This document shows, piece after piece, positions 6,855 to 49,351 of a stretch of 60,078 nt of DNA. Location: contig JACVRA010000412.1 in the NCBI GenBank assembly GCA_019828545.1, positions 1 through 60,078 on the forward strand, written 5' to 3'. The first letter of the stretch is position 1; each line of letters opens with the position of its first letter. A program made the position numbers and the translations under genes. The notes beneath the pieces were generated by a model that did no database searches, had not been told where the DNA came from, and saw only the letters and a program-made list of their open reading frames with translations. Source of the DNA: Paracamarosporium sp. OC-R06-R3 (Eukaryota > Ascomycota > Dothideomycetes > Pleosporales > Didymosphaeriaceae).

Positions 6855-9636
6855 TCATTTGCCACCTATCGTGACTGCCAGCACAATCGAAGAGTCCATC
6901 CCTGATCGTTTGTCGTACCAGTCTGGAACATATCTTGCATGAGGCTTCCACACATGAGAAGTTTGGTCTTCATCCGTCGCTTTCACAACAGATAGTTCAC
7001 CCATTAGCACTTTCGAAGATTCGTCCTGGCCGGCACGAACAGCCCAATCCAACGGCGTCTGTCCGCCGCGGTCTTGAGCATCCAGATTGGCTCCATACTC
7101 CAGCAGCAATTTTATAGTCTCCAAATGACCCTGGCCTGAAGCTGTATGTAATGGTGTTATTCGGTCAAAGTCCGCGCGATTAGGATTTGCGCCTGCTTGC
7201 AACAAGGCAGCACTAATGAGTGAGTGATGCCTATAGACCGCACCATGCAGAGCTGTGCCACCAAAGCGGCTGCCTGGTGCGTCAAGATCAACTCCTTGTT
7301 TGATAAGGTGTTGAACTATGTGGAATAGACCAAAGGATGCGGCATAATACAGAGGGGTAGCATGCCGGGGATAGAGACTCCATTTGAATGGCGCATCCGC
7401 GTTGAGGACCTGAACCCATGACAAAAATGCTGCGCGGTTCTCGGATGAAAAAAACGCGGCAATCTTCTCCTGCAATTGGGTCTCGCCACTCGATCCTCGG
7501 AGATAGTATGTCCAAGCTGTAGAAGCGTGTCTGAGAAACGGATGCTCGGCTAGTCGTTGAGCAAACGAATCCGCACTCTCGCTAGGCCCCGATTGGAAGT
7601 CCAGAAATGATAGATAGGTGAAGCAATCAACAGCCAGCTCACTCTTTGCAGTCTCATTACACACCGCAAATGCTGATGCAGGTCCTTTCCGGATGCTAGC
7701 AGAAAGCAGATAGTCCTTGACGGATAAATGGGCCAGTTGCACATGTCCCTCTCTGCTGACATTGATTAAACTTCCGCACATCTCTAGAATATCTTCCGTA
7801 TTAGCAAGGCAGAGATCTGTATCCAGCTCGTCTGCATTTTGCTCAATTGCGATTGCAGACCGCAGCTCTTCCAGGGTTAATGGCAAAACTGTAAATGATA
7901 ACCAGAGAAGGATCTTGCGAACAAGATGTATATCGGCTACAGCAACTTTGGTTAGAACATTCTCATATACTTCACCAAGCCCTTTAGGTATGTTCTGTAG
8001 TGAAACCCGGATACCCCTGACTGTACGCAATGTAGCTATCTCATCTATAGTGCATTGTACGAGACGGAACCTAGAAAACCTCAGTTCTAAATTGTCATTG
8101 ACATTTCATGCTTACTCACATTCCGTCAGATCTTGACCGGAGAGATTGTTGTATGTCCCATTTGACAGAAGGCTGTAGCCTTCGCAGTCGTGTGTCAGAG
8201 CTCAATCGGTGCTCAATGTATGATTTGATATCCTCATCGACATCTTCGACGTAGTCCTCCATGTGAACACGCGTAAAGGACGACAACGCATCTTTGATGT
8301 CCACCGTGTCACGGCTTGTTACTAGTACACTAACCTTCTTCGTAGAGTGCTGTATATCCACCAAAAAGTCAAGGAGGTCCTGCCGACTTTCACATTCATC
8401 TATGGCGTCGATGAGCAATATAATCCTGTTGAGTCTGGAGAGAGACTGTAGGACCGCCCGTAGAGCCGAGAATGAAGGAGGCTTGCGTACTCCGCTTCCT
8501 TGTTGGCTTCCCTCGAAAGCAGTCCGCAATTCGATTGGACAAGAACCCATCTGAGAGCATAGCTGTGCAATAAGTGAACCTAAAGTATTAATAGCACTCT
8601 GTGTGTTATTTTTGCGGAAGTCACAATAGAAATACGATACAATTGGCTGGTGCACTGTATCGCTATCAGCAAAGTAGTCGCTGGTTAGTGACATGATTAT
8701 GTTAGAGCTTTTACTAATGTTAGTTGACGCAACTGCGAGTGGAAAGAGTTAGCGGAGCACATACAATAAAAATGTTTTCCCACAGCCCGCTGTGCTATGT
8801 TAGTTGAAACGCTCTATGTTGGTCATACATGGCTCGAGACTCACGAAAACCACTAAGCCACAAGAAGGCATTATTGCTAGTGCGCCAGTGTTGGAACACT
8901 TTTGACTTAAGGAACCAGGTTCCTGTGCCGGTGTGATGGGCATTGGCAACCAGCTCGTGGTTATCGAAAGAATCGATAGGTGCTAGCCATCGTGTAATGG
9001 CTCTGTCTGCGTCGTCTGGAAAGGTATAATCAGATAAGAATTGTAAACGTAATAGTTGTTGCACATACTGCGCTCTTTTGTGTCGATATCAGTTACGAGT
9101 TTAGAGACATTTGCACCGATACACTGAAGATCTTCACCCAGTGATTTATTCAAGTCGCGTATTTCCTTCAGAATAATGGATTCGTCCGCTGTCATCGCAA
9201 GTATAATCGTATTTTTGCATCGATCAATTCGTTCAAGACATGCCTTTGCTTCAGTGTCCTTGAGCTGCCATCCCATTACCTGTATGAACACTCGTCGTTT
9301 TGATATAGGCGCATTAAACCCGTAAGTCGAGACAATCTTTTTTTCGAGAAGCGCAAGTTCCTGATGGCACCGAACTAAGGGCCCCGACTCTGTATCACAG
9401 AGTATGGTAAAGGTCCGCAGCCGTTTGGAGTCTTCAAAGTTGCTTTCGTTAAGTGGTTCCACAACGCGCTCAACATTTTCCAAGAGGTTGCGTAGGTCTT
9501 TGATCTCGTCAAGTACCCAGGTGAGAGACCATGGTGCTTTATGCAGCGCGGCGCGAAATTCGTAACATACTGAAAGAACAGAGTTTGCTAATTGAAGTAC
9601 GGTGATCAGATTTGCTGTTACACTCAACGGATCCAT
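6855..9636 (-). CDS. NLR-like STAND protein: helo-like/PigL_N - NACHT - ankyrin
   Basis: I reconstruct five exons: 9636-9069, 9015-8845, 8789-8765, 8713-8120 and 8070-6855, giving 857 residues with four introns of 49-55 nt. The start is set at MDPLSVTAN, the standard opening of the fungal STAND N-terminal (helo-like) family. The 25-nt third exon carries most of the P-loop, which reads SGFPGCGKTF across the splice (Lys about 251). A Walker B-type block LLIDAIDECE lies at about 353-363. Four ankyrin repeats occupy about 688-811 (TPLYYAASFG, TALHGAVYR, TPLHTASGQ, TPLDWAVRAG). Such proteins act as intracellular sensors that oligomerise with nucleotide. All expected modules are present with no internal stop, so the gene looks intact. 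Confidence 0.85.
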
Positions 9637-11479: not shown

Positions 11480-14077
11480 GTGATGACACCGCCAGGCCAA
11501 CGTTCATCGAGATCTCGTACACACACAAAAAAGTTACAACAAGACATGTCGGAAGTGGAGCTGCGATCATCTGATGGTGCACACGATTCGCCGGCCGTGT
11601 CAGTGTCGTCAGATAATTTACCTCATACATTGTCGACCAACCAGAAAGACGATCCGCAAACGGGTTCGAATACCTGCCAGTACTGCAACCAACAGCTCAC
11701 AGTCTCATCTGATGGATCTCATCACATATGTCCGGACCGAAATAGGGGACAGACACCGGGGAAATGGCCCTCAAATCAGCCAGATACGCGGAGAGGTCTG
11801 TCGGACGACCCGTCCACTGTCACTACTGCACAGAGTAACACGGCTCTACCAGAGAAGCGTAAACGGTCTGAACAAGACGAAGAGCAAAGATCTGGCCAAT
11901 CCTCAGATGCATCCTCTAAAAGACCCAGGGTGACTGACCAGGATGACGACGATCCGACGTCTCCTTCCGAGCCGCCACCATCGGAAGTACGTCGCCGACA
12001 AAGGCCAACACCGGTACAGAACAGACACCGGTTCGGGCGTGTTCCAGCAGGAAATGAAAATAGGTCAATTGGCATGAGAGAAAGGGTTTTGAGCGTCATG
12101 TCAAAACAAATCCATATGCGTATTAGAGAGGATCAGGTCAGACTGCTTATGATCAAGCCAGGAAAAGAAGACGAAGAAATCAACGTCAGTTTGTTCCCGG
12201 TCAACGACGAAGATTTGGGTAAAAGATTTCAATATGAAGCACTCTCATACCATTGGGGTGAAGGTGCGGAAGACAACATCATCATCGTGGACAAGTGGAA
12301 CTCGAAGCCCATACCAAAATTGGTATCGGTTGTGGACAAGTTGTTGGATCAGAACAAGACTGAAGGTAACAAGCGACAAGACCTGAAAGCCCGGACCTAT
12401 GGCGTGCGCGAGAACTTATTTGCGGCCTTGAAAAGCCTACGAGATCCCTCTAAGGAAACATACCTGTGGGTCGATGCTCTGTGCATCAATCAGAAAGACG
12501 AGTTTGAGAAAACCCAACAAGTGATGAAGATGAGTCAAATCTACCACAAGGCAGATAACGTTTGTATCTGGCTTGGTGTAGGTGATAGAGATTCTGATCA
12601 AGCGATGGACTTCATAAAGAAGGTCATCAACGAAGATTTGCTCCCAGAACTCCTTTCAAATGATCAACACATTCCTCACTGGATATGTCTATACCAGTTA
12701 CTAGAATGGAGCTGGTTTACCCGCCGCTGGGTTATCCAGGAGCTTGCCCTAGCACGAGAAGCAACGATACACTGCGGTAGGAAGCAAGCCCATTGGAACG
12801 ATTTCCGTGACGCTATTGGTATCTTTTACCGATATTACGACAACCTAGTGTGGAGGATGAAGAAACACGATCCTCGTGGCAAGGAAATCACAGATGACCT
12901 GGGATCCCTGGGCGCTCAACTTCTCGTCGACCTTTCCAGTAACGTTTTTCGTAAGAACGATGACGAAACGTATCAGTCGACCAAATCGCTCGAGATGCTA
13001 GTCTCGCAGCTTGCTGGTTTTGACACAGCGGATCCACGTGATACTGTTCATGCACTACGAAACATCTCCCGAGAAGGTTACCGCCCGAACGGAGAACCCC
13101 CTCCAAGTACGCAACCCCAAATACCTAAGTCAGACTATGGGCAAGATCTCATGGAAGTTTATCAAAGGTTTGTGAAGTGGACTGTCGATACTTCTGAATC
13201 TCTAGATATCATATGTCGGCATTGGGCATTGCCCGAACGGGAAAGGGAAGGACCAGCCACTCCATATCTGATTGAGAAACTCCCATCGTGGATCAAGACT
13301 GTGGACAACGCCCCTTTTGGCAGAGGTGCAGATGTCTACAGAGGACGTCGAGCTGGTGAAAGCTTTGTTGGCCTTCCTGGCAGGAATACATACACCGCCT
13401 GCGGTCGTACTACAGCAAATGTCAAATTCGGCATATATGAGACAAGACGAAAAAAAAATGAGACAGCCACGCAGGATACATCTCTATCAGTCCGCGGTCT
13501 ACACATCGGACAAATAAACGCCCCACCCATCTCGATACCTGACGGAGTCATTCCTCAGGATTGCCTCGCATATCTTGGCTGGGATAATGAATCAGTTCGC
13601 ACGGAACTCGAAAATGCACCAGAGAAACTGTGGCGGACACTTGTTGCCAATCGTGGTCCAAATGGACAGTATGCGCCTACATACTACCACAGAGCCTGTC
13701 TCAATTGCCTAGTCAACCTGACAGTCAATGGCCATCTTAATGTGTCGGAACTTACTAAGAAAATCGCACTCAATGAACAAACAAGCATTACCAAAGACTA
13801 TCTGGAGCGCGTTCTTGCAGTAACATGGAACCGATCCATTTTCCAAGCAGAGTCGCTTGCCCAGACGTCTGAGAAACTTGTAGGCTTAGGACCCCCTAAA
13901 GCCAAGGATGGTGATGCTATTGCTATTCTGTACGGCTGTAGTGTTCCAGTGATCCTTCGGCCTATCGGCGAAGCTTATGAGTTGATTGGGGAAGCTTACA
14001 TCCATGGGCAAATGGATGGCGAGGCAGTACAGGACAAGCAACACAATGATAGGTCCCAGTGGTTTAAACTGGTTTGA
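11480..14077 (+). CDS. HET-domain (heterokaryon incompatibility-type) protein
   Basis: Single exon, 865 residues; a second in-frame ATG at residue 23 (MSEVELRSS) is also possible. The HET domain starts near residue 250 and shows its three landmark blocks: ALSYHWG (about 254-260), LWVDALCINQKD (329-340) and RRWVIQELALA (about 415-425). HET domains are related to TIR folds and trigger regulated cell death on non-self recognition. In front lies a long disordered tail with a Cys-x2-Cys...His-x-Cys cluster at residues 66-84 that could bind zinc, and basic nuclear-localisation-like patches (EKRKR, SKRPR). The region after residue 450 is long and unassigned, with likely substrate- or partner-sensing function. 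It lies divergent to the STAND gene. Confidence 0.88.
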   Translation: MMTPPGQRSSRSRTHTKKLQQDMSEVELRSSDGAHDSPAVSVSSDNLPHTLSTNQKDDPQTGSNTCQYCNQQLTVSSDGSHHICPDRNRGQTPGKWPSNQPDTRRGLSDDPSTVTTAQSNTALPEKRKRSEQDEEQRSGQSSDASSKRPRVTDQDDDDPTSPSEPPPSEVRRRQRPTPVQNRHRFGRVPAGNENRSIGMRERVLSVMSKQIHMRIREDQVRLLMIKPGKEDEEINVSLFPVNDEDLGKRFQYEALSYHWGEGAEDNIIIVDKWNSKPIPKLVSVVDKLLDQNKTEGNKRQDLKARTYGVRENLFAALKSLRDPSKETYLWVDALCINQKDEFEKTQQVMKMSQIYHKADNVCIWLGVGDRDSDQAMDFIKKVINEDLLPELLSNDQHIPHWICLYQLLEWSWFTRRWVIQELALAREATIHCGRKQAHWNDFRDAIGIFYRYYDNLVWRMKKHDPRGKEITDDLGSLGAQLLVDLSSNVFRKNDDETYQSTKSLEMLVSQLAGFDTADPRDTVHALRNISREGYRPNGEPPPSTQPQIPKSDYGQDLMEVYQRFVKWTVDTSESLDIICRHWALPEREREGPATPYLIEKLPSWIKTVDNAPFGRGADVYRGRRAGESFVGLPGRNTYTACGRTTANVKFGIYETRRKKNETATQDTSLSVRGLHIGQINAPPISIPDGVIPQDCLAYLGWDNESVRTELENAPEKLWRTLVANRGPNGQYAPTYYHRACLNCLVNLTVNGHLNVSELTKKIALNEQTSITKDYLERVLAVTWNRSIFQAESLAQTSEKLVGLGPPKAKDGDAIAILYGCSVPVILRPIGEAYELIGEAYIHGQMDGEAVQDKQHNDRSQWFKLV

Positions 14078-29153: not shown

Positions 29154-30449
29154 TTATGGCTTCTTATGCTTCCGGACTTTCTCCATCAATGCTTCTGCTA
29201 TGTCGTGGGCGAAGCTTGCTTCGTTAATTCCTCGAGCATCGCTCTTGATCTGAATGTTGGTGCCTTCAAGACCCTCGTGGATTGCCTTGAACATTGCTTC
29301 ATCTGCCGACTCATCTGAAAATGGTCCGTCGGGCGTAGAAATCATACTGACACCTGCCTTAGGCAGCCACACTTCGATCATCGCAGGCTCTCGGGCGTGC
29401 TGACGCAGCTGAGCTGCAATGAAGCGCCCAACTTCAGCTGCTTCCTTTTCGGATGTTCTCATCAATGTCACCACCGGATTGTGTTCGTACAATTTGCGGG
29501 CCTTGTAACGTTCTGGCACTGTGTTAATAGGTCCGAAGTTGGACATGTCAGTTGCGCCGACTGACACCACGTTGGGTATACCGGCTTTCGCAGCTGCTTC
29601 GAAGCGATCATCACCAGCGCTCATGATACCGCCTGTGAGTAGGTCGCACACTTCTGTTGTGGTGAGGTCTAGCACCGCATCAAGTGTGCCTTCACGGACC
29701 AGTCGCTCCATAGCTTTACCTCCATGTCCGGTTGCATGGAAGACATAGATCTCCACATTGTAGTTCGATTCGAGATGCCTGCGTATCGCATCCACGGCCG
29801 GTGTAGTCACGCCAAACATGGTAATGCCGACCCTAGTCTTTGCATCAGGCATGATTACTGTGCGCCGAGCTGCGTAAGAACAAGCCATGCCAGCGATAGC
29901 TGCGCCCGCATTGCTAAGAACATTGCGCAAGACCTGGTTCAGTCCAGCAACATCTACTACCGAGTACATCAGCGTGATATCTGTCTCTTCGACAATGGGT
30001 CCGGTGTCGCCGCTGGCAACTGTCGAGACAATCAACTTTGGGAATCCAATTGGGAGCGCATCTCTCATGACCGCTGCAGCGAGAGAGGTTCCTCCCGAAC
30101 CTCCGGCGGATATTATACCGTCGAGGTAGGTGCCATCGAACCGTTCGTAGAGATCCTTTACTAGTGCCGTGGTGAAGCCTGCCATCGTCTTGATGACATC
30201 TCCACGCGGAAGTTCGTCGATTTTCTGGCCATTGCCATAGCTCTCTATCAGCTTGTTGTGTGGATAATCGATAGCCTTATGGTGGGTTTCTTGTCTTCCC
30301 ACGTCGATGAAGATGACGCTCCCATTCGGATCCGCCGACGTGATAGCTCCGCGGAGAAACAAAAGCTCCTCCAGTTTTGTATCGCAGGTTCCTAGAAGAG
30401 CTACGCGAACCATGACGGTGTTAAGAAGGCTATGATCTTCCAAAGACAA
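29154..30449 (-). CDS. UPF0261 / Tm-1-like ATP-binding domain protein
   Basis: Intronless, 431 residues; a second ATG at residue 13 (MVRVALLGTCDTK) fits the usual family start better and would give 419 residues. The diagnostic opening is VALLGTCDTKLEELLFLR. Further blocks include GGSGGTSLAAAVMRDALPIGFPK, FHATGHGGKAMERL and SVGATDMSNFGP, all typical of the Tm-1 N-terminal domain family, whose plant member binds ATP and a viral replication protein. In bacteria and fungi the role is not known. It is transcribed divergently from the TIM-barrel gene at 30570, which encodes the other half of plant Tm-1. Confidence 0.88.
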   Translation of the reverse strand: MSLEDHSLLNTVMVRVALLGTCDTKLEELLFLRGAITSADPNGSVIFIDVGRQETHHKAIDYPHNKLIESYGNGQKIDELPRGDVIKTMAGFTTALVKDLYERFDGTYLDGIISAGGSGGTSLAAAVMRDALPIGFPKLIVSTVASGDTGPIVEETDITLMYSVVDVAGLNQVLRNVLSNAGAAIAGMACSYAARRTVIMPDAKTRVGITMFGVTTPAVDAIRRHLESNYNVEIYVFHATGHGGKAMERLVREGTLDAVLDLTTTEVCDLLTGGIMSAGDDRFEAAAKAGIPNVVSVGATDMSNFGPINTVPERYKARKLYEHNPVVTLMRTSEKEAAEVGRFIAAQLRQHAREPAMIEVWLPKAGVSMISTPDGPFSDESADEAMFKAIHEGLEGTNIQIKSDARGINEASFAHDIAEALMEKVRKHKKP

Positions 30450-30569
30450 TGGTCGGTCGAAATGTGATGGATGGTAGTCGCTTCTAGCAGCCCCGCAATG
30501 TTGACTAGGTGACGTCAGCGCCTCGCATTCAATGGCAGGCGTCCGCGGCGAAACCTCTCCAACACAACC
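30450..30569. promoter_or_regulatory. 120-bp shared bidirectional promoter
   Basis: Only 120 bp separate the start codons of the UPF0261 gene (minus) and the TIM-barrel gene (plus), or 156 bp if the later UPF0261 start is used. Both promoters and 5' leaders must fit here, so co-regulation is likely. I see no obvious TATA box. Confidence 0.6.
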
Positions 30570-31462
30570 ATGGCGCCCCCAAGTGACCGCAAAGAGATAT
30601 TGCAGAAACTGCGAAATTCGATATCCGATGGCGCTGTCATTGTTGGTGCTGGCGCTGGCATCGGCCTTTCGGCCAAGTTTATCGAGCAGGGCGGTGGTGA
30701 CCTGATCATCATCTACAATAGCGGCCGTTTCCGGATGGCAGGCAGGGGTTCATTGGCTGGGCTGATGCCGTATGGAAATGCCAACGATGTTGTTTTGGAG
30801 ATGGTCGGTCCAGTTCATTCACAATGGCCTATACGATAACTCATGATGGATCCCAGGCAAACGAAGTGCTGCCCGTTGTGAAGAAGACGCCGGTTCTTGC
30901 TGGGGTCTGCGCCACTGACCCCTTTCGCGATATAGATCGCTTTCTCAAACAACTGAAAGACCTCGGGTTTGCTGGCATTCAAAACTTTCCCACAGTTGGT
31001 CTCATCGACGGTCAGTTCCGACAGAACCTGGAAGAGACAGGTATGGGCTACGATGCAGAAGTCGAACTGGTTCAAAAGGCACGTGAACTGGACCTCATCA
31101 CTACTCCGTACGTTTTCAACGTGGCAGAAGCGAAGAAGATGAGTGAGGCAGGTGCAGATATTATCGTTGCGCATATGGGTTTGACCACTTCTGGGTCTAT
31201 TGGTGCAACGAGTGGAAAGAGCTTGGATGACTGCGTAAAGTTGATCCAAGAGATAAGAGATGAAGCTACGAAAGCGAACCCGGATGTTATTGTGCTATGT
31301 CACGGTGGTCCTATCGCTGCACCGAAAGATGCAGAGTATGTCATATCGAGGACGAAGGGCGTGCATGGTTTTTACGGTGCCAGTTCAATGGAGCGACTAC
31401 CGGTCGAGGAGGCGATTACCAACATTACCAAGACGTTCAAGCAATTGAAGCCCAGTGCATGA
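30570..31462 (+). CDS. TIM-barrel protein, phosphoenolpyruvate hydrolase-like (Tm-1 C-terminal type)
   Basis: Exons 30570-30803 and 30857-31462 give 279 residues; the 53-nt phase-0 intron (GTCGGT...CCCAG) joins VVLEM to ANEVLPVV. The barrel shows the family blocks [62 protein letters not shown] and [13 protein letters not shown]. This is the PEP-hydrolase-like TIM-barrel family, found in plants fused behind UPF0261. The length fits the stand-alone bacterial form. Without splicing, the first frame ends early at codon 90. The enzymatic reaction is not established for the fungal form. The divergent neighbour is the natural partner. Confidence 0.88.
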
Positions 31463-32757: not shown

Positions 32758-33968
32758 GTTAGATATATCAATAAGAGTATTTCTGCTTGATACTGAGGGA
32801 CTTGAGAAGAGAAGCTGCAGAGAAGGGGCGATACTTCAGGCAGGTATTTATCCACCTTTTCCGATGGATGCATATTGATATATATCCCCCAGAAAGGCAT
32901 GCCTCCCGATCTATTCTATCATCTACACTCGCACGATACATACATCCTACAGGGTCATTTTCGCCTCAATTAGTAATCATCATCGAACAAAAATCACATT
33001 GTCAAGTCGTTCCGCTGTTTAGGCCCTGCAAATGTGCTTCAACGCTAGAAGCAGTGCCACTTTGGTGTCGCGCCTTCGGAGTTTGAATAGGATCCTCAAC
33101 AACAGAGGATGATTACAAATTGCTCGCCAAGGTCTTGTAGAACTTACGGTATTTGCTTCAATCTAGGCCTACGCGGTAGATGGTTTTTAGACGCAAATAG
33201 CGTAATCGGATTTGTGACGGAGGCAGATACAAACACGGAAGCAAGAATGATTTTGGTCGTATGTCTACCAACGACAGCGTAACAAATAAACAAGTCATTG
33301 AGATGTAGATTCCTCTGTATATTCCTGTAAACTTATCGCTTTTTGACTTATTCTCGAAAGGAAAATACTTCACCTCATATGAAGCACGACGTGATCATCA
33401 TCTGTGACGAATAACTGATTTTAATCTATCTATAAAGTATGATTTCACCACATACCCTATCTAATGCTGATGCATTAGATACTAAGCAATATAAGATAGT
33501 CGTAGTACATAGAACATTATGAGGTTGTTTGTAGTGTCTCATCTGTCGCAACTATAAGAAAAAAAGTTTGCGTCAGTCCTGAATACTGCTGCAGTTTGTC
33601 TAAAAAAGAGCTAAATAACTGTCTTAGCCATTTCTCCTAATTCGTAGATTTTGATTTGGAGAATCATGTTGCTTGGGTAAGCTACAACTGTGGCTGTATG
33701 TTGCAGTCATATGCTTCTCTGTGATTGTTTCCCATTTCCTGCGACTGCTTGTGCTGTTTGCTTGGAACCTCAATTTCGATCATAAATACCACATAGTTTT
33801 CTACATACTCACGGTATCAAGTTATATAGCCTATCCTGTATTTTCAGCTCTCCGTCGTCCCGGTGACCTCATTCACCTGCCCCTTGTTTCGATACGCGTC
33901 GCGGCTCGAATAAACCACGCTAATCGAACGCGCTAGAGGTGAGACTCCCGCCGCAGCTCTTGCCCTAC

Positions 33969-33977
33969 TATATAAAG
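33969..33977 (+). promoter_or_regulatory. TATA box of the first island gene
   Basis: TATATAAAG is followed by a pyrimidine-rich start-like tract (CTCTTTCTATACACTCAACTC). It lies about 310 bp before the ATG at 34282, a distance accounted for by the leader intron listed next. Confidence 0.55.
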
Positions 33978-34038
33978 CCTTGTGCGCTCTTTCTATACAC
34001 TCAACTCTCTTGTCGCCGTCAACTACATTCGTATACCT

Positions 34039-34195
34039 GTAAGTATGCATAACCAACATGGTATGAACTACTCTAAAGCGTGTCCACAGCCTGAAGCATT
34101 GTAGCGCCTGGAAAACAGTAACTGACGGACTTGGATCTCGCGCTGTTCGTATGCAATGTGCACTGGTTGCTCCCTAAGGTACTAACGCGATACAG
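34039..34195 (+). other. Probable 5'-leader intron
   Basis: GTAAGT donor, a good ACTAAC branch sequence about ten bases before the end, and a TACAG acceptor. It lies between the TATA box and the ATG at 34282, so it would be spliced from the untranslated leader. At 157 nt it is longer than the coding introns here. Confidence 0.5.
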
Positions 34196-34281
34196 TCCGA
34201 ATCTCCCCCACAATAATATATAGTAGGGACGCAGAGCTTTTCTTAGAGGATAAGTTTTCAGAAAAAACGGTACTCAGCACT

Positions 34282-35468
34282 ATGAGCTCTTCGCATAGAG
34301 GCGGATCAGCGCGCTTGCCGGCCACCATGCAGGGTAACTACCCTACAACAGCGGCACAAGATTTTGCTGCAAATGGTCTTTCGGGTTCGGGATCGCCAGG
34401 TGAGTAGTCTTCTCAGGAGACCGACAAGAAACTAATCTTACGGCTGCACAGGCCCCGACGACGCAGCGAATGTCGATTCTGATGATGAATCGCGTGATTA
34501 CAACAGCGACAACAACAGCAATGGTGAGTATAGATCTAAAGTAAAGAAAACTCGGCTAACTGTTGGATACAGGCAACAGTGTCATGTCAGACGTCGATAT
34601 AACCGAAGACGCAGTAGAAGAAAATCCTACATATTCCCAGCAGAGCGCACCGACAAAGAAGGCGAAGAAAGTGTCAAGGAAGAAGGGCAAAGGCAAGAAA
34701 TGGACCCCGAGCTACGATACCGCGGTCACTGCCTACACCTTAACAACCTTCAAGAACAGGATCGGCGTTCCTGGAATGCAAGCATTCATGAGGCGACAAG
34801 AATTCAACATCGATGTCGACGCTGAGTTCCCAATTGTGGGCAGGAGCTATTATAATCACGATGGAAATTCGGTTGGTCGCGGAGATGCTATGGCAGAGAG
34901 GTGTAGTGAGCTACATCAGAGCCTCCTCGACGCTCATGAGGCTGCTAGAGCGGAAGAAGTCTCACGGGAGGTGGAAGCCAATCAGATCATGCAGGGAGCT
35001 CGCATCGACACCTCTTCTAATCCAGCGAGAACCTTTCCTGGGTGGCCCGGCAATCTTCCACCTGAGGCCATGGTGCCTGACTCTTATCGCACTACGCTGG
35101 CGCGTATCGATCTGCAAACGATCAGAGACCAGGCATCTACCGAGATCAACGCGGCGTACGATAATAACCAGGAGCCTGCAGCCGAGTTCACGAATCTTGT
35201 ACTCAGCAGTGACAACCAGCCACTTATTTCCGCCAATGTCCAGCGCCTTGTGTACAGAATCGTTCACGCGCAGATTCGTGGTAATAGGCTCCGAAGCCTT
35301 CACGTTGCCGAATCTGGAGACCAACGTTTCCAAATTCCAGGCGAGTACGAGGAATTGCGAGCAAGGCTTAGATATGAGCTCCGGGACGCCCTGAATCTGG
35401 AGGAGAACGTCGACCGCGCGGCCACTGCTCAACGGCTAGTGGTACAGGAGTTTCCACCACATCTATGA
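34282..35468 (+). CDS. Island paralogue 1: unknown basic protein with modules A and B
   Basis: Exons 34282-34399, 34452-34523 and 34573-35468 give 361 residues; both introns are phase 1 at Gly codons. I do not recognise the family. The first 60 residues are low-complexity, with exon 2 encoding an Asp/Asn/Ser-rich stretch. A strongly basic patch follows (KKAKKVSRKKGKGKK, about 92-106), suggesting nuclear location. Module A (about 107-180) starts WTPSYDTAVTAYTLTTFKN and has FNIDVDAEF. Module B forms the C-terminus (about 276-361) with LISANVQRLVYRIV, a charged helix EYEELRARLRYEL and the end FPPHL. Both modules recur in the gene at 39677, and module B in the gene at 41851. No signal peptide or membrane helix is present. 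Confidence 0.75.
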
Positions 35469-36673
35469 AATGGGTGCTTCTGTGCCCAGACATATGATGA
35501 TGAAACGACTTGGTAGCTCGATGTCGTGAAAATTTTTGTGTACGTTGCTTGGTTATGGTGTCTTTTTTGGAGGGTTTTGATCAAGATTACCCTTTTCTTT
35601 CTACGGATATGGTTGATTCATTGTAATTTACAAAATTGCTAGACGGGAACCACCCGAGAGCTTCTTGGATAATCGACTGAAAAGCATTTAAAGGCAGATG
35701 GTCACCGTTTGTATTTGCCAATGTTTTCTTTTTGGGCCATGGTATTGATTTTCGCACTGGATGTCAGACTGAACAAGTTGTGTTACCTAGGTGTTCTTGC
35801 TATCAACGTGCGATATCTGTCAACACTCTAACTTTTGAAGTGTTCTCGCTTTGTTGAATGACAACTCAAATAGAACATTTGAGAGTAGCGCCGTTAATGT
35901 GGCTGATGAACACGCGGCTACTCAATACCCGCCGTCCGCACTTCTGGTCTCTCGGCCCACCATCTTCGATTTTACGCACTCAAACACAGTTTTCTCCCCT
36001 TTTCCCTTTGTTGATTATCTTGAGCCACACACTGTTATCTGCATGTATAACCGACGCATAACCAGCTTGTAGTATTTCGCTCTCGAAACTTGCTTACCTG
36101 CCTTTTTTATGCCGTACGCGGTCAGTATATGCCACGGGCTTGCACTGCGTTCAATTTCTAACGTTAGGGCAGAACTACTACCATAAATCATCGATGACCA
36201 AAGCCGATGCACCTAATCATGTCTAATATGAACTCGATTTGAACCTCCACCGATAATACGACCTATAAACACAATATGGTTGTAGCCACGGAGAGTGAAT
36301 ACTTCACATCAGTTGTCAAAGGCGCGACTAGAGTTCAAAAAACATTTGCTCTGTGTCTATTCATCGCGACTAATTACTTTCCTCACAGATCAGTTGGTAC
36401 TCTGCATCTTATCTGGTACGTTCAAACCGCGCGTTCAATTCACTGGTAAACTCATCAACTGACTCGGCTATGGCTCAGACAGATAAGTCCAAGACAAATG
36501 CACAGGAGAAGGTCTCTACGGTAAGTAATCATTTTTCTTTGTCGCTTCGGGAGACTCATGGTGTTCAACAACTAAGCAGTTTTAACCTTTACACACCGCC
36601 GATTAGGGCTGGCACTCTCGAGACTCACCTTCAGTACCGCCTGCAAACCTGAAAGGTAGCCTCTGTTGTCGCC
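35469..36673. other. Spacer between island copies
   Basis: No intact gene. A possible short first exon starts at 36470 (MAQTDKSKTN, followed by a GTAAGT donor) and may be the 5' end of the decayed copy downstream. A 16-bp sequence at 36223-36238 recurs at 37231-37246. Confidence 0.35.
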
Positions 36674-38343
36674 ATGACACGTATTGTCGTTAATATGGAC
36701 TCGGCCAATGCCTCTCAATGCGAGTCAGACACCGCATCTTCGTCAGAGCGGAGGGCTTCGGATGCCACTTCTTCTCCCGCTCATAAACATAGAATGAGCG
36801 AACAGGCATACCTGAGAAGTAACGTAAGAAAAGCATGAACGGTAAAAGGAAGACAGCAAAGGTTTCACTCCCAACTGGCGTTCCATATCAGTCTACTCTG
36901 TCACAACACTATGCAACAGGGTCGGCAACACAAAAAGCATCAGGTTCTTAAAAGACCGTGGCATCGACGTTGTGGATGACTTCACAAAGTCGCATATAAT
37001 CTACAAAGGAGCGGCAATAAATAGGAACAATGTTCTAGCGCCGAAAGCCTAAGAGGCCCAACAAGCCCAGAAGTGCGTCGGTGGTCAAATTATGGCTGTG
37101 GCTAGAGAACCACCGCAATTGTCCGGTACCGAACCCGACTTGACATTCAGCTATCGTGCCAAGATGGACATCCGGGCCGAAATCGTTCTCATATAGAGGA
37201 TCACAAAGCAGAGGGTAACAGAGAAGATGGCTAATATGAACTCGATGGAGACTACACTGCTCAGACTTTACGGTTGGCGATTGCTTCTCGTACTCGTGTA
37301 GATATTCGCGCGATCAAGGAGGCTATCTTAAATTTTGAATTCAGCTCGTGTTCTCCATGACGTCGTTCTCGACAGTCTCAGTCGGCCTATGATCTCGATT
37401 CACGCACAAGAGATCATTGGTTGCCTTGCCAAGTGGGAGAAGTGAATGCACGTCTTCGGTACCGAAGCCAGAAACAGGCTCCCACATCTCCGCTCTCAGC
37501 TTTTGCAAGGTTTCATAGCGGACCAGACCAAGCTCGTTATGGAGCTTTTGCGAGCGATCGAATGGGGTGATGGAGTGAACATCGTTTTCAGAGTTACAGA
37601 AATGGTCGAGCAAGGATTTATGTTACAAGTGTGGCAAACTCAAGGATAGATTGCTTGGTGTACGAGTATAGTGGATGGCATCGAAATCTTACCTGTGCTG
37701 AGAATATAATAAACCATGAAATCAGCTTTTGCTGATTTGCGCGATTACTATTCCTCTAGTATCATTTGGTAGTTCTATTGACTAGGATTACCAAAACATC
37801 GTGAGGGCCAACACCGTCACGCTTGGATGGTTGAAGTGGTACCGAGAAATCGCAACCATGGATACTGCGAGGCAACAGAGCTCTGCTGCCTGGATGCAGA
37901 ATATATCTTCGCCTTACGGGCATAGTGCGTCGGAAAATACTTCATCACCCAATCCAAATTCGAATCCAACATGCTAGGTTGCACGATATTCTTGAACCAA
38001 AAAGCCGCTTATATACGAGCCTTGAACGACCTAGTCCAGGGTGAACTCCCAGCCCTGTCACATGGAAAGATGATCTGTATCTCGTTCGATGCGGCTATCT
38101 ATATTAACAGCCCTTGTAGATCCCTTCGCGCATTAGGATCAATGTTCGTCGTCACAGATCTCCTCTAGATCGGTTACGATGGAAGTATGTCCTCCTACTA
38201 GAGAGACGAACAATACTAACGTTGAACAGAACCAGAGGAAGAATATGCACGAGAACAGCGCGAGTTGATTATCGAGGACTACAAAGGGTGTAAGAGCATA
38301 GCAGAGATAAGGCGTCCACATGAGCTATCGGAACTGTGCTGAG
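36674..38343 (+). pseudogene. Decayed copy or copies of the island family
   Basis: An open segment at 36858-37052 translates to a clear module A: FTPNWRSISVYSVTTLCN, RFLKDRGIDVVDDF and IIYKGAA align block by block with WTPSYDTAVTAYTLTTFKN and FNIDVDAEF of the copy at 34282. The segment is preceded by an in-frame TAA and ends in TAA; beyond the stop the same frame still resembles the parent (GGQIMAVAR against NQIMQGAR). A Ser-rich N-terminal part at 36674-36835 is in another frame. Further down, weak module B-like pieces occur (HGKMICISFDAAIYINS near 38060-38115 and EEEYAREQRELIIEDYKG near 38230-38285), separated by stops. The downstream part may be a second decayed copy. The module A homology is firm and the rest tentative. 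Confidence 0.6.
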
Positions 38344-39676
38344 AAGACGAGAGAACATCTGGATTTACCAAACACACAAGAACAGGCTTGAAATGTTACG
38401 ACGATAATATAGCGTCGAACAGAAATGATACCAGCGTCGATTATAGCGAGATGAATGATAATTTCAATCCTTACAGCTGATTCTAAGTAACTGTATAATC
38501 ACCCTATTTACAGCTTTCGAATCTTGCAACAACGTCAAAGTTGAAATTATATGTCGTGGGAAGCCTTATGAATGATTGAGTGGTGTTGGATTCGAGAATT
38601 TCCGGGCTAAATCGCAATATAGGGGCACGTAATTGTTGATGTCTAAGACATTTATAGCGTCAGAGCTAGCATGTCAGGGCTTACCAGTCTTAATCTACAT
38701 CTCTCTCTAGTAAAACACAAGATATCTCTAATAAATTCATATATGCAATGCGAATCTTAAATGGGTATCAACGTAATTAAATGATTGTTTCTGCTCCAAA
38801 AGATTAGAGATCGCATGTCCAAACCCAGTCGCTACACATCACTATGTTCGTATGACCATAGGATCGAATATGTCATGAGTAGTCTAGAGATCAAATAAAA
38901 TGTGCTTGTACCAGTAGTAACTGATGCAGAGGTGGGAATGACTCGCCCATATCTACCGCTCATCCTTCTATAGAGATAAGTGATGTTGCGCACTTAACTG
39001 GCACTGTACATCAATTCAGCAAATTAGTAATGCGCAGATACATTGGAATTGATATCATCTCACAGAAAGCTCACAATAGACGCTACGGCGCAGGCTTGAG
39101 TTCATCTGCCGGGATAAAAGCTGTTCAGGAGTTCAGACGGTGAAATATGGGTTCGTAAATAGCTGATTGACTTCAAGACTGCTTTATCTACCCCCATATA
39201 CAGTGCTTCTCGGTGCTTTCTGTGACGAGCAACGATATAGATAGCAACCCATAGCAGCACATTCTATGCCAATTAAGACTAGAACATGCCTAAAATATAC
39301 AAATGACCGTATGAAATGACAAATATAATCTATCTCCACCAAGTGTAAGTTGCTGCAACGGTCAACTTCCATGCAGTGTAAATGCGTCTGTCACGTGTGA
39401 CGGGCTCCTGCTTAATCAGTCACAAATCTATTGCACAACGCACTAGGAGTTACAAGATCACACACGCACCACGCTTCACTCAACTCAACTGTATGCATAC
39501 CATTTATCCCCACCCTACCTGATCAGCACCGCGTCCTTCACGGGAGCAGCACGCATTACTTGTCACCAACTAACGCCTCGGTAATATTGAAAGATTTTTG
39601 GTATCATAGAACGCGTTGTATCAATTCGGCCTAAGATTCCATTCAATCAGAGCACACCCAAACTTGAGAGAGCAAA
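38344..39676. other. AT-rich gene-free stretch in the island
   Basis: No open frame longer than about 65 codons and no domain-like peptide was seen. The sequence is AT-rich with many stops in all frames. It holds the promoter of the gene at 39677 at its end. No transposon ends were recognised. Confidence 0.45.
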
Positions 39677-41189
39677 ATGAACGTGCTAGGCGAAAAATCT
39701 ACGCCTAATCGGCAACAGCGTGGTTCGGCCCTCTTGCTCGATTTCTGGAATCTGACACAGAGTGCATACCAATCTTCAGATGTTGTGTCGCAGGATCACA
39801 GTATCAGTAAGTTGGAAATTCTTTTGCTGGCCCATACTAATATTCACAGATCACAGTACTCACAACCATGGGAATCGAGCTCAACAACCGGAAGACACCA
39901 CCGACAAAATCTCACCGGAACTCGACGACTACAACCACCTCATCACTTTCCATGCCCTTAAGGCTCTACCGGCCTCTGTAGACTCTTCTACTGCTTCCAT
40001 TGGCCGCCGGACGAAGTCTAAGCACGGCCAAGCAAAGAATCCCTTCAAACCTAAGTGGTACGGAGCTAACAAAGTCTATTCTGATTCCACCCTCTACAAT
40101 AAAATAAACGTTGCTGATAAAGAGGCTTTCCTGGCTGATGAAGGTGTGGACGTTGAGAAGCAATTTCCACGTAATGGTTGCGTGTTCTACCGGCAGGAGA
40201 GTAACGGTAAACGCTCGAAGATCTCCAGGGGCCAGGCATTAATAGATCTTGTCAAGATTGTCCATCAGCAAGTGATAAATCGAAGGAGGGCTAGCGTTCC
40301 TGTACGTCGCCGGAGGGTGCTGAAAGTGGGTGGCCATGATCGGGACAACAGTACCTCCGGGGCTGGTAGCGAGCGCAATCGAGCGACGGGGGCACATTCC
40401 ACCTTGAATACGCTCGAAACTACCAAACGCCCGCATCTCACCTCGAACCCAAACGGCGATCGCCGCATATCAGCCGCAAACCAGGTAAACGAAAAGACCA
40501 AAGTAAACGGCAGAGAGCGTGCTTCAGTCGCGTTTCAATCACTATCTGCACCTGGCTCCATATGCGCGCCAGAGCTCCGACATAGAAAGGCTCCTCTTCC
40601 AGAAGACCCCATCTCTACTACTACCAACGAAACACCCCGTAATCAAGCCCTCGTCAACGAGCCAACCCTTCAGTATACAATGGCCTCCCTTCGCGAAAGC
40701 CCTGAGTCTCCCGCTACCTACAAAGCACGCCAAGATCTGATCCTCATCAAGAACACCATAATAGCTGAGAAAGACTCCAGCAATGTCCAAAACAAAGACC
40801 AACAAGCAGTCTCTTCCCATGAGATTCACAACGATGCGATCTCCCAGCAGACCCAGGAGAGGAAAGCAGAACGCGAGAAATTTGTCCGCGACGACCAGGG
40901 CAACATTTTGATCTCAGCCGAAGTCCAAAGGCTCGTACGTCGTACTATTAACGCAGCTAATACCTACGCTGACCGCAAGCGTCGTTGGGACGAGGGAGTG
41001 GAAAAGGACCAGCCTAGAAGCGGCAAGCATCTCAAAAAAGAGGGAGCCGCCGCAAAGGAAGAATATGGGAACGCCCGAGCAGATCTTATGCAGCAACTTG
41101 CTTATGATGTTTTGTGGGAGCCATACGTATACCGTCCTGGTTATAGGGCTGGAGATATCGTTGTGGATGTTTTCCCCCCGAAGCTCTAA
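39677..41189 (+). CDS. Island paralogue 2: unknown protein with modules A and B
   Basis: Exons 39677-39806 and 39850-41189 give 489 residues; the 43-nt intron is phase 1 (GTAAGT...CACAG), the same phase as in paralogue 1. Module A (about 109-184) reads FKPKWYGANKVYSDSTLYN, then EAFLADEGVDVEKQF, VFYRQESNGK and SRGQALIDL, and is again preceded by a basic stretch (GRRTKSKHGQAKN). The middle 200 residues are Ser/Thr/Pro-rich and probably disordered, much longer than in paralogue 1. Module B ends the protein (about 388-489): GNILISAEVQRLVRRTI, a basic linker, a helix with ADLMQQLAYDVL and the end VVDVFPPKL. No secretion signal is seen. It is probably nuclear or cytosolic, with unknown function. 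Confidence 0.75.
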
Positions 41190-41850
41190 ACCATGCTGTT
41201 TCTCAAGGGCCTTATGTCTGGTCGAGGATAGGTAAGTTTTCAATGCTTGCTCATTTGGACCGGTCACTCACCAACCATCTAGCATAGCTCGAACATCCTT
41301 TACACAATCCAAGGAGGGAGTCGAAGTCCTGAAGTCCCTGTGGCGAGACTGTGGATCTGATCGGTGGGCTGTGTAAGGGTAGCCAAACGTCGGATGGATT
41401 GATATCAATCGAATGATGAGCAAGCAGGATTTGACTTCTTTATCTTCATGGCAACAAGCTTGGCACTGCGGTTTCTCATACGAGCCCATGGCGGTTTGCG
41501 ATTGTACAATTGCTAGTTGTGTATAAACAGAATTATTATACTGAACCTAGTGACTTGCTCTCGACATTTGTGATTGATTCTGGTTTATTAATCAACAAGC
41601 TGTGCGGCCTCACCCAGGCGACCGTTGATTGAGTGCGCATGAAGACCTATAACTCAACGCTTCTACACGGTCTTCTGCACGAAAGAAATGATTTACCTGA
41701 CGGTGACTTGTCTACATATTTTGGCATTGGAATTAAGCTTTGGAACAGCATCACGTCTTGCCTATAATCTTTCTCGACTACACGAGCTATCACGGCCGAA
41801 AACGCGATACGTACCCCTTTGCAAGAATCCCCAGCAGTTTCATAACGATC
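41190..41850. other. Spacer between paralogues 2 and 3
   Basis: A 661-bp stretch with no supported gene. The frame of the next gene is open back to 41740, but the ATG at 41851 is the better start. Confidence 0.4.
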
Positions 41851-42354
41851 ATGGATGACTTCATCAACGCAAACTCCGCGAACAACACCTCTCAAAAGCC
41901 CAAGTTCACTGTATCCGAAGTACATACTGCTCTAATAGACATCAAGAATGCAGCTCTAGATACGTGGTACATCGAACACGACCGCAAACGCCCCGTAGAC
42001 ATCGAACGAGGACATACTCTGTTTATGCGCTGGAATAGGTATTCGCATCGTGCACCCCAACTGATTCTCTTCGGCTCAGACGGCAAAATCCTTCTCGGCT
42101 TACGTATTCAAAGATTGGCAAACGACTTGGTAAAGAGGGCCAGCGACATCAACATATCGGCTAAGTTGGAAGCGAAGTTTATCACAAAGACAAAACTGTA
42201 TCTTTACGACTTGGAGGAATTCAAAGAAAGAATGAAGATGATGCACGACTTGCTCGAGGAGCTTATCAACATGCCGAGTGTGCAAGCGAGGAATGAGGCG
42301 ACCCGGATAGTGAATGAGGTTTTTGCGCACACAATGGAGGACGGACAGATCTAA
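41851..42354 (+). CDS. Island paralogue 3: short protein with module B only
   Basis: Single exon, 167 residues from MDDFINANSAN; an in-frame ATG at 41740 would add 37 residues. The last 86 residues match module B in length and pattern: GKILLGLRIQRLANDLV corresponds to LISANVQRLVYRIV, DLEEFKERMKMMHDLLEEL to the EYEELRARL helix, and TRIVNEVFAH to the VVQEFPP end. The first half (KFTVSEVHTALIDIKNAAL) does not show module A. It may be a derived truncated member or a regulator built on module B alone. No introns, signal peptide or membrane segments are seen. Confidence 0.65.
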   Translation: MDDFINANSANNTSQKPKFTVSEVHTALIDIKNAALDTWYIEHDRKRPVDIERGHTLFMRWNRYSHRAPQLILFGSDGKILLGLRIQRLANDLVKRASDINISAKLEAKFITKTKLYLYDLEEFKERMKMMHDLLEELINMPSVQARNEATRIVNEVFAHTMEDGQI

Positions 42355-46940: not shown

Positions 46941-49351
46941 TCAGCCCAAAACGATCACCTCAGTCTGCGGACTTGCACTTATCCATTGTTCCTTTTTCAT
47001 CAGTTCAGGAATTGCGACCCGATAGTAGACATTTCCGATGCGCTCTACCACCATAGTATGCAAGCCGCCCGGAGATTCTTCGTCCTGGAACGGGCTTTCG
47101 GCAATTAAAATACACTCCAGGACATCGGCTTGTTGGTTCATCCACTCGACGTTTAAGCGAACCTCAGTTTCGTGCTCGTTGTTCACGTCGCTTAGACAGT
47201 ACACACCCCATTCGACTCTGTCTCGCATATCGAACTTATCGAACTCATCGAACTTGGAGCTAGGATTTTGAAATTTTGGCAGCTGCGAGACTTTGAAACG
47301 CCCAACACTTGTTGAGATTACAAGCGTCTGTGAGTTTTCGAAAGGCAAAGAACTTTGTGGAATATCTAGTAGTACTTGAGGTTTCAGATCGGAAATCGAT
47401 ACTTTTGGTCCAATCTCGTCAATATGTTGTTTGGAAACGTCTTGCGCGGGATTTGTATTGTACGCTTCAGCTCCACTGCTTGGGTTCTTTAAATCAGGGA
47501 ACATTTCGAATGGACGCTCCGAATTCAAGTTGTGGATGTGCACAAGGACGAGTGGATGCGACGGGGCCACAAGTTCGAGACTTCTCCTCGGCCATCGTCG
47601 ATATTCTGGATAATGCAGGGAGTCTCTGAAAGAAACGCGTCCATGGAAAGACCATCCCGTCCAAGACCAAGACGGAAACATAGATCGGCGGCGCATCTCA
47701 AGACCACTGGAGACCACATAGTCAGCTTCCCAAAGTAGAGCTCCAGGAAGAAGTTCTATTGGAAGACCCCAAAGGGATTTACCTATCGTCTCCTCTTCGC
47801 TTTTTAAAATGCCGCTAAAAGCCGAAAGATAGTCACTCTCGTAAGTCAGGTCACGAGAGACAAAGGAGCTCAAAAGCCTCAGAAGCTTTGTGTACCCAAG
47901 ATGCTTTCCAATCGGTAGTTCAGCAGCCGAACCTTGTATGTATCTTTGTATCTCATAACTTGAGTGTGTCGCCTGCGATAAATTACTGCATAGAAGTCTT
48001 TCCGAACCATCTCGGATGCAAAGCGTTTCGGAATAAGCGCCTTGAAAGCAATGAAAAATCACATCCGAGTCGGTGAAGAAAATCTGACGACGAGACAGTA
48101 CGAGTTCTTGGAACGTCCAGCCACGGGTACTCCATCTGGATCGATCTAATGCTGCTCCACTATCTTCAACGAATACATAGTTGGTTCGGCTGATTGGTAA
48201 TATTCTGTGGGTATTCACTACTGGGTTCGACACTCTCGCAAGCCCTTTGTGTAATTTGAGTGTTTCTGCGGCTACCAGGGTGACGTATGCCGTGGAGTAA
48301 ATTAGATCCATATGTGAAATTTGCTTCACTTTCTCCATTGCATCATCCTGGACGATGCAAAGAGCATCGCACCAGAGGAACGGAATTTGGAGCTTTTCGC
48401 AAACGATCAATGCGTCTTTCACCACAGCTGTCAGCTGTGAAGTAAGATAACTCAAGGACCCTGGACGCGCTAGAGTCTGAAGATTGTCCTTTATAAGTGT
48501 ATACTGTCCCGTACCCCAGGTATAGCTGAGCGCAGCGTAACGGTACGATAGATCTGCATTAACAATAGACTTTTTTCTCACGTCAATGAGTCGAAAGTAT
48601 GGCAAGGCCTGGATGGATTGACAGACTGTAGGATGCGTGTGGCTCTCGTCGCATTCCCGTATCCAAGACGCGACTCGTTCAAAATTTACGAGTGGCTGCA
48701 AACACCGCCGAGCAAAATGCTGAAGTTTTACTATTCTGGAGCGACTGGCGTTGCTCAATTCAAGTGCCGTATCTCCTACGAGAGGAAGAACAGATAGTCT
48801 CAGCTCTTTGGAACGGAATTTGACATTGATTATGGGGTAATCCACGTCCCAGAGACCCTGATGTAGTGAGCCAAGTGGAAGCATCGAACCTACAAACACG
48901 CTTATTTGAATTAACGTACCTCGCGGCGCAACTTGATATAGGGACCCGGAGAGAGCCACAAGCGCGATGATTGCTCTACTATTCCGGGAAAATATTCATC
49001 GAATATCTCCCTCATCAAGTCGCAAAGCCGGCACAATCCTTCCTCATTGCGTGTGCTGGTGTCATAATTTTGTTGTGGACCAGCAAACTCAGTCATGGCC
49101 AGATTAACCACCTCAAACTCGTCCCACTTTATGTGAGCAGGATTGGTTGAATCTCCACGGTCCACCCAGAAATCCCAGTGAGAGCAACGGACACAAATAC
49201 CGTCCTCCTGCACGCGGATAATCCGCTGGTGGACAACATTGTTAGCGTCCTCGAGCATGCGTTGTGTATGGCCGGTTGTGGAGGCTTTTAACCCATCCTT
49301 GTAACGTAAGTAAGTGAGTAAAGAATCGTGAACACCAGACCGTGTCGCCAT
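46941..49351 (-). CDS. HET-domain protein
   Basis: Exons 49351-48920 and 48857-46941 give 782 residues; the 62-nt phase-0 intron (GTACGT...CATCAG) joins KLRRE to GLWDVDYP. The HET domain shows ALSYTWGTG (about 252-260), FLWCDALCIVQDD (304-316) and RGWTFQELVLSRR (about 389-401), the classical three blocks. The N-terminal 120 residues carry two CxxC pairs (Cys53/56 and Cys107/110), a common feature of this group and possibly zinc-binding. HET domains are associated with cell death after recognition of non-self. The C-terminal part contains the typical PSWSWTGW block near the middle and is otherwise unassigned. An alternative acceptor 26 bases upstream breaks the frame, so I prefer the chosen one. 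Confidence 0.87.

What the first reader, a model, noticed from the sequence alone, without database searches (positions are those of the whole stretch)
34282..42354. Same-strand island of an unrecognised paralogous gene family
Three intact genes (34282, 39677, 41851) and one or two decayed copies (36.7-38.3 kb) share sequence modules that I cannot assign to any known family. They lie in one orientation in a gene-poor, AT-richer stretch between conserved blocks. Basic patches before module A suggest nuclear proteins. This is the best candidate for an undescribed system; its function is open.
Basis: partly seen in the sequence, partly recalled or inferred. Interest (0 to 1): 0.75.

Follow-up and report, generated by a model that had tools for sequence, protein, structure and literature searches.

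The report
Small fungal family-restricted gene island
A short stretch of an unnamed fungal genome holds three related genes of unknown function and one dead copy; relatives were found only in close fungal cousins and in unnamed samples, and no known structure or function was matched.

Summary
The core observation holds. Genes at 34282 (361 aa) and 39677 (489 aa) are paralogues sharing modules A and B. The gene at 41851 (167 aa) shares module B, more weakly. One decayed, same-strand copy lies at about 36.7-37.6 kb (0 of 400 shuffles reach its chained score).

Of 9 relatives found, the 3 with a species name are Didymosphaeriaceae (Pleosporales). Gene 2 found no relative. Genome searches found no other open copy, but they also missed the decayed one. 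No curated Pfam cut-off was seen to be reached, and no solved structure matched.

Best reading: a young, fast-turnover, family-restricted gene cluster. Gene 1 is probably a nuclear helical adaptor or regulator (lysine-rich patch, two helical modules); gene 3 is a shortened, module-B relative. The history is well supported, the mechanism is inference. An undescribed family of an ordinary kind; moderate interest.

The parts
34282..35468 (+). Gene 1, 361 aa: exons 34282-34399, 34452-34523, 34573-35468; modules A and B
   Evidence: spliced open frame with GT-AG introns; 6 relatives at E 5.4e-97 to 8.2e-67
34650..34700 (+). Lysine-rich patch before module A of gene 1 (PTKKAKKVSRKKGKGKK), NLS-like by eye
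   Evidence: 10 K/R and no D/E in the best 25-mer; kept in P0001, P0002, P0005, the 3 of 6 relatives that reach this region
34731..34991 (+). Module A of gene 1 (helix, beta-hairpin, long helix in the model)
   Evidence: alignment A1; AlphaFold2 block means of pLDDT 69-86 for residues 51-130 and 56 for 131-140
35061..35465 (+). Module B of gene 1 (helix, short hairpin, three helices; conserved C-terminus)
   Evidence: block means of pLDDT 66-89 for residues 171-300
36700..37620 (+). Decayed copy (pseudogene): module A fragment 36861-36992, module B fragment 37341-37418, weak tail 37524-37619; frame breaks and stops between
   Evidence: colinear profile score 20.6 (gene-1 profile) or 30.6 (with gene 2); 0 of 400 dinucleotide shuffles reach it with either profile (maxima 5.4 and 6.3), reverse strand 0
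37693..38345 (-). Retroposon-like insertion 37706-38333 flanked by the 12-bp duplication CTGTGCTGAGAA (37693-37704 and 38334-38345); not a family member
   Evidence: 46 other matching pieces in the genome, 39 of 46 starting within window positions 37700-37721; duplications at 14 of 16 places; family profile score 0
39677..41189 (+). Gene 2, 489 aa: exons 39677-39806, 39850-41189; module A, long low-complexity middle, module B
   Evidence: no outside relative
40005..40301 (+). Module A of gene 2
   Evidence: module-A profile of gene 1 and relatives: 38.4 bits, 0 of 2000 shuffles, maximum 6.4
40821..41186 (+). Module B of gene 2
   Evidence: module-B profile of gene 1 and relatives: 16.3 bits, 0 of 2000 shuffles, maximum 9.5; E 0.013 among 1873 segments; hhalign over both modules
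41851..42354 (+). Gene 3, 167 aa, with a conserved N-terminal part and module B
   Evidence: 3 relatives at E 3.0e-67 to 1.1e-56, alignment A2
42064..42327 (+). Module B of gene 3
   Evidence: 18.6 bits with the module-B profile that includes gene 2, 0 of 1000 shuffles; E 1.6e-4 among 1873 segments

Best explanation
This is a small tandem family of genes restricted, as far as could be searched, to the fungal family Didymosphaeriaceae. It grew by local duplication and loses copies. SHOWN: genes 1 and 2 share modules A and B; gene 3 carries module B behind its own conserved N-terminus; a fourth copy has decayed and a retroposon-like repeat inserted just behind it; no other open copy was found in this genome. 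INFERRED: gene 1 makes a nuclear protein. Its acidic, serine-rich start is probably disordered, the lysine-rich patch would carry it into the nucleus, and the two compact helical modules would bind partners (protein or nucleic acid), so it would act as an adaptor or regulator rather than an enzyme or a secreted protein. Gene 3, with module B and little or none of module A, could share or compete for module B's partner. Gene 2 is a fast-diverging duplicate.
For: Homology. With module profiles built from gene 1 and its relatives only (so gene 1 matches by construction), the next best of 1873 segments are gene 2 (E 1.6e-9) and the decayed copy (0.01) for module A, and gene 2 (0.013), the decayed copy (0.082) and gene 3 (0.55) for module B. 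Restriction: the 3 of 9 relatives with a species name (Karstenula rhodostoma, Paraphaeosphaeria minitans, Didymosphaeria variabile) are Didymosphaeriaceae; no gene-1 relative was confirmed in viral or prokaryote contigs. One locus in the genome: eight searches find nothing better than E 0.43 elsewhere. Constraint: dense invariant columns in both alignments. Linkage: a gene-1 relative (P0004) and a gene-3 relative (P0008), both from source jgi, each sit on one contig of 35,665 bp. Nuclear cue: basic patch kept in P0001, P0002 and P0005. Helical modules.
Against: No experiment, expression data or partner supports the nuclear adaptor role. Profile-profile comparison of the gene-1 and gene-3 families alone is not significant (E 0.089, and it aligns 25 columns at the end of module A, not module B); gene-3 family against gene 2 gives E 0.021 over 25 columns. 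Three of four gene-3 family members score within reach of shuffles with the gene-1-only module-B profile (14, 64 and 104 of 1000 shuffles as good). The gene-1 model is middling (mean pLDDT 67.7, pTM 0.46) and the gene-3 model poor (45.1). The genome searches did not find the decayed copy in this very window, so decayed copies elsewhere cannot be excluded. The named hits are patchy (gene 1 in two species, gene 3 in a third), so a joint function is not shown.
Confidence: 0.5

Rival explanations
1. The genes take part in allorecognition or genome conflict. They sit on a contig with two HET-domain genes and an ankyrin protein with a winged-helix domain, turn over by duplication and decay, and are lineage-restricted.
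For: HET in the frames 11480-14077 and 46941-48959, ankyrin and GPIID_WHD in 6855-8030; a decayed copy and a repeat insertion in the island.
Against: The HET genes are over 4 kb and over 20 kb away. No HET or NACHT domain was matched in the family at E <= 1. HET genes are common in such genomes (own knowledge).
Confidence: 0.15
2. Lineage-restricted coding genes under weak constraint, with no important function.
For: Gene 2 found no relative; one copy has decayed; gene-1 relatives are 51-63% identical to it.
Against: Gene-1 and gene-3 families keep many invariant columns, and genes 1 and 3 are probably still linked in another fungus.
Confidence: 0.2
3. The genes come from a mobile element, domesticated or still mobile.
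For: A retroposon-like insertion lies inside the island, and the island is gene-poor.
Against: No transposase, integrase or reverse-transcriptase domain was matched at E <= 1. Open copies were found at one place in 43 Mb. The island shows no RIP bias, whereas the six reverse-transcriptase loci printed do.
Confidence: 0.05
4. Secreted effector-like proteins.
For: Lineage restriction, small size of gene 3 and a gene-poor setting are effector-like (own knowledge).
Against: By reading, no N-terminal hydrophobic signal in genes 1-3; no signal-peptide program was run. Gene 1 has a conserved internal lysine-rich patch.
Confidence: 0.05

Closest known systems
Lineage-restricted (orphan) gene islands of filamentous fungi, such as the orphan regions of a wheat pathogen named in PMC5082898 (listing and start of abstract seen only)
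   Same: genes without recognised domains, gene-poor setting, a repeat insertion, copy turnover (the general picture is own knowledge)
   Different: here a small paralogous family with relatives in several genera of one fungal family; presence or absence within populations was not tested
DUF2939 (PF11159), a family of unknown function
   Same: 5 of 7 gene-1 family members show a weak match (best E 0.0021); in the two coordinate rows seen (P0002, P0005) it lies in module B
   Different: best score seen 18.8 bits, below the curated cut-off 24.8; the window's own gene 1 shows no such match at E <= 1
Hypothetical proteins P171DRAFT_438349 (Karstenula rhodostoma) and PMIN03_009157 (Paraphaeosphaeria minitans)
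   Same: relatives of gene 1 over 87% and 80% of its length at 50% and 49% identity
   Different: none in kind seen; both are named hypothetical, and the names occur in no paper of the held library

Membership tests
Family defined by gene 1 (modules A and B) | gene 2 carries module A | tested here: met
   38.4 bits, 0 of 2000 shuffles; E 4.2e-12 for the whole profile
Family defined by gene 1 (modules A and B) | gene 2 carries module B | tested here: met
   16.3 bits, 0 of 2000 shuffles, maximum 9.5; hhalign E 7.1e-9 over both modules; alone, E 0.013 among 1873 segments
Family defined by gene 1 (modules A and B) | gene 3 carries module B | tested here: met
   E 1.6e-4 with the profile that includes gene 2; 3 of 4 gene-3 family members exceed all 1000 shuffles and the fourth (P0007) is reached by 4; weak without gene 2
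Family defined by gene 1 (modules A and B) | gene 3 carries module A | tested here: inconclusive
   no full module A: 1.3 bits, 34 of 1000 shuffles as good; but relative P0008 scores 4.5 bits (1 of 1000) and hhalign aligns 25 columns of module A's last helix to gene 3's first helix (E 0.089)
Family defined by gene 1 (modules A and B) | decayed copy holds modules A and B in order | tested here: met
   0 of 400 shuffles reach the chained score
DUF2939 (PF11159) | score above the curated gathering cut-off | tested here: not met
   best seen 18.8 against 24.8 bits (best E of 7 members 0.0021)
HET-domain allorecognition proteins | PF06985 HET domain | tested here: not met
   no HET match in genes 1-3 or the 9 relatives at E <= 1, while two neighbours match at 1.4e-30 and 9.9e-28
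Known folds of solved structures | significant structural match of the gene-1 model | tested here: inconclusive
LINE-like retroposon (37706-38333) | target-site duplications, one fixed and one ragged end | tested here: met
   14 of 16 places with duplications of 7-12 bp (as long or longer in at most 3% of 300 random pairs each; misses L019, L027); 39 of 46 pieces start within 22 bases of each other
LINE-like retroposon (37706-38333) | reverse transcriptase in a longer relative | tested here: inconclusive
   no longer copy found; 0 of the 30 reverse-transcriptase loci held, of 41 matches, share the repeat

The most novel reading that the evidence does not exclude
Modules A and B are a protein architecture so far seen only in one fungal family, and the locus encodes a nuclear regulator (gene 1) together with a shortened module-B partner or competitor (gene 3), kept linked across species while further copies come and go.
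Probability: 0.2. Interest if true: 0.55.

Novelty: new member of a known kind. Interest (0 to 1): 0.33.

Why it matters
It is a compact, testable case of how a gene family confined to one fungal family arises: two full paralogues, a partial paralogue, a dead copy and a repeat insertion in about 8 kb. If the nuclear role held, it would show a lineage-restricted gene gaining a regulatory function. Without that it is one of many undescribed fungal gene families.

Tried and rejected
Second decayed copy at 37.7-38.3 kb: rejected, it is a dispersed retroposon-like repeat with family profile score 0. Further decayed copies on the + strand in 33000-34281, 35470-36400, 38346-39676 and 41190-41850: chained score 0 in all four.

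Modules A and B as an internal duplication: no sequence support (hhalign E 0.37), although the model shows a hairpin followed by a helix in both.

RIP as the cause of decay: the stretch with the decayed copy has TA/AT 0.77 and CATG/ACGT 1.14, like its neighbours, against 1.53-1.84 and 0.13-0.74 in the six reverse-transcriptase loci printed, of 30 held.

Other copies in the genome: the next best were E 0.43 (contig C104) and E 0.84 (C276); profile re-scoring gave E 0.33 for the first and nothing for the second. These searches missed the decayed copy in the window itself, so they speak for open copies only.

Viral or prokaryote origin: 25 and 41 pattern stretches for the gene-1 family, none confirmed. 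The prokaryote collection holds no fungi, so this says nothing about other fungi.

Solved structures by sequence: best E 0.75 (gene-1 family) and 0.31 (gene-3 family); gene 2 was not searched there. Viral fold library: nothing at E <= 0.001, best E 0.25. VIA-align left module A barely tested. Sub-threshold Pfam rows also included DsrD in 3 of 4 gene-3 family members (best E 0.012; 15.5 against 24.2 bits for gene 3) and Di19_C for gene 2 (E 0.01; 16.8 against 29 bits); taken as chance.

Papers: the three relatives' names occur in 0 papers; 'Didymosphaeriaceae' with 'lineage-specific genes' in 0. Searches were read as listings and abstract starts only; no paper was opened.

For gene 1 the profiles and the model used the unspliced main frame 34566-35465, whose first two or three residues fall in the intron; for gene 2 the comparisons used the unspliced frame 39762-41186, which differs from the spliced protein at its start.

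Full report
SETTING. The window is a whole contig (C197, 60,078 bp) of a 43.1-Mb assembly in 337 contigs. It reads as a filamentous ascomycete: spliced genes and HET, NUDIX, GH76 and SET domains. The nearest named relatives of the island's genes are Karstenula rhodostoma, Paraphaeosphaeria minitans and Didymosphaeria variabile, all Didymosphaeriaceae, Pleosporales. The species of the window is not identified.

GENES. Gene 1 (34282-35468, three exons, 361 aa), gene 2 (39677-41189, two exons, 489 aa) and gene 3 (41851-42354, 167 aa) are all on the + strand; the three introns are GT-AG. Gene 1 has 6 relatives (E 5.4e-97 to 8.2e-67), 51-63% identical in the alignment. Gene 3 has 3 relatives (E 3.0e-67 to 1.1e-56), 60-68% identical in the alignment. 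Three of these 9 relatives carry a species name.

ARE THEY ONE FAMILY? Genes 1 and 2: yes. A profile of gene 1 and its relatives scores gene 2 at E 4.2e-12 among the 1873 stop-to-stop segments of the window. hhalign gives E 7.1e-9 across both modules. Each module of gene 2 beats all of 2000 shuffles. Gene 3: with the module-B profile of gene 1 and its relatives, the top four of 1873 segments are gene 1 (by construction), gene 2 (E 0.013), the decayed copy (0.082) and gene 3 (0.55). With gene 2 in the profile gene 3 reaches 1.6e-4, and 3 of the 4 gene-3 family members exceed all 1000 shuffles, the fourth being reached by 4. Against this, hhalign between the gene-1 and gene-3 families alone is not significant, and three gene-3 members do not stand clear of shuffles without gene 2 (14, 64 and 104 of 1000). 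I take gene 3 as a module-B relative. It shows no full module A; a 25-residue resemblance of its first helix to module A's last helix leaves open that it is a shortened form.

DECAYED COPY. In 36401-37700, module A (36861-36992) and module B (37341-37418) fragments lie in order on the + strand. The chained score is 20.6 with the gene-1 profile and 30.6 with gene 2 added; 0 of 400 dinucleotide shuffles reach either (maxima 5.4 and 6.3), and the reverse strand scores 0. The other four intergenic stretches tested and the repeat score 0 on the + strand.

THE REPEAT. 37706-38333 matches 46 other pieces in the genome (40 of 54 candidates scored; some contigs hold several pieces, and one piece is the hairpin read on the other strand). 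39 of these 46 start within window positions 37700-37721, with ragged other ends. Duplications of 7-12 bp flank 14 of 16 places examined; the misses are L019 and L027, and random pairs of places give one as long in 0.3-3%. The window's own is CTGTGCTGAGAA at 37693-37704 and 38334-38345. Independent truncation beside a fixed end with target duplications is the pattern of non-LTR retroposition (established knowledge). No longer copy was found, and none of the 30 reverse-transcriptase loci held, of 41 matches, shares it, so its autonomous partner is unknown.

DISTRIBUTION. In the own genome, searches with gene 1, gene 2, gene 3, P0003, P0005, P0008, P0009 and the C-terminal part of gene 2 find only this locus, apart from two matches at E 0.43 and 0.84 that gain no support from profile re-scoring. 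None of them found the decayed copy, so decayed copies elsewhere are not excluded. P0004 (gene-1 relative) and P0008 (gene-3 relative) come from the same source, each on a single contig of 35,665 bp. That is probably one contig and thus conserved linkage, but contig names were not shown. Among named species, gene 1 was hit in Karstenula and Paraphaeosphaeria and gene 3 in Didymosphaeria; missing hits may be missing gene models.

DOMAINS AND FOLD. No Pfam family was seen to reach its cut-off in genes 1-3, and among the relatives the best E is 0.0021. DUF2939 is the nearest, sub-threshold, in 5 of 7 gene-1 family members; DsrD appears, also sub-threshold, in 3 of 4 gene-3 members. The gene-1 model (300-aa main frame; 181 of 300 residues at pLDDT 70 or more; pTM 0.46) has a low-confidence N-terminus, then a helix, a hairpin and a long helix (module A), and a helix, a short hairpin and three helices (module B). 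Foldseek and VIA-align found no convincing relative, but module A was barely tested. The gene-3 model is poor and was not searched; gene 2 was not modelled.

HOW IT MOST LIKELY WORKS. Shown: family, decay, insertion, restriction as far as searched, conserved basic patch. Inferred: gene 1 is a nuclear protein with two helical binding modules, and gene 3 shares module B's partner. The inference rests on the basic patch kept in the three relatives that reach it, the lack of any enzyme-domain match, and the helical model. No program for localisation, signal peptides or membrane segments was run. My confidence in the family and its history is about 0.9; in the nuclear adaptor role about 0.35-0.4.

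VERDICT. An undescribed but ordinary kind of thing: a lineage-restricted fungal gene cluster.

Noticed in passing
window 37704-37790, minus strand: The fixed end of the dispersed repeat carries a perfect 8-bp hairpin (AAATCAGC-loop-GCTGATTT; z -2.44, 4 of 200 shuffles fold as well). A second subfamily (L026, L028, L032) keeps the stem with a different loop, which looks like a 3'-end recognition hairpin.
   Followed up: partly
L034-L039: The six reverse-transcriptase loci printed show strong RIP (TA/AT 1.53-1.84) with stops inside, while short copies of the dispersed repeat reach 99-100% identity, as if too short for RIP.
   Followed up: partly
window 11480-14077, 46941-48959 and 6855-8030: Two HET-domain genes and an ankyrin protein with a GPIID_WHD domain lie on the same contig.
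   Followed up: no
window 29154-31462: A UPF0261 gene lies next to a divergent gene at 30824-31462 that looks by eye like its TIM-barrel partner; only the first was scanned.
   Followed up: no
L026 (contig C244, about 96.5-101.9 kb): Several copies from both repeat subfamilies lie within a few kilobases, a local hot spot of insertion.
   Followed up: no
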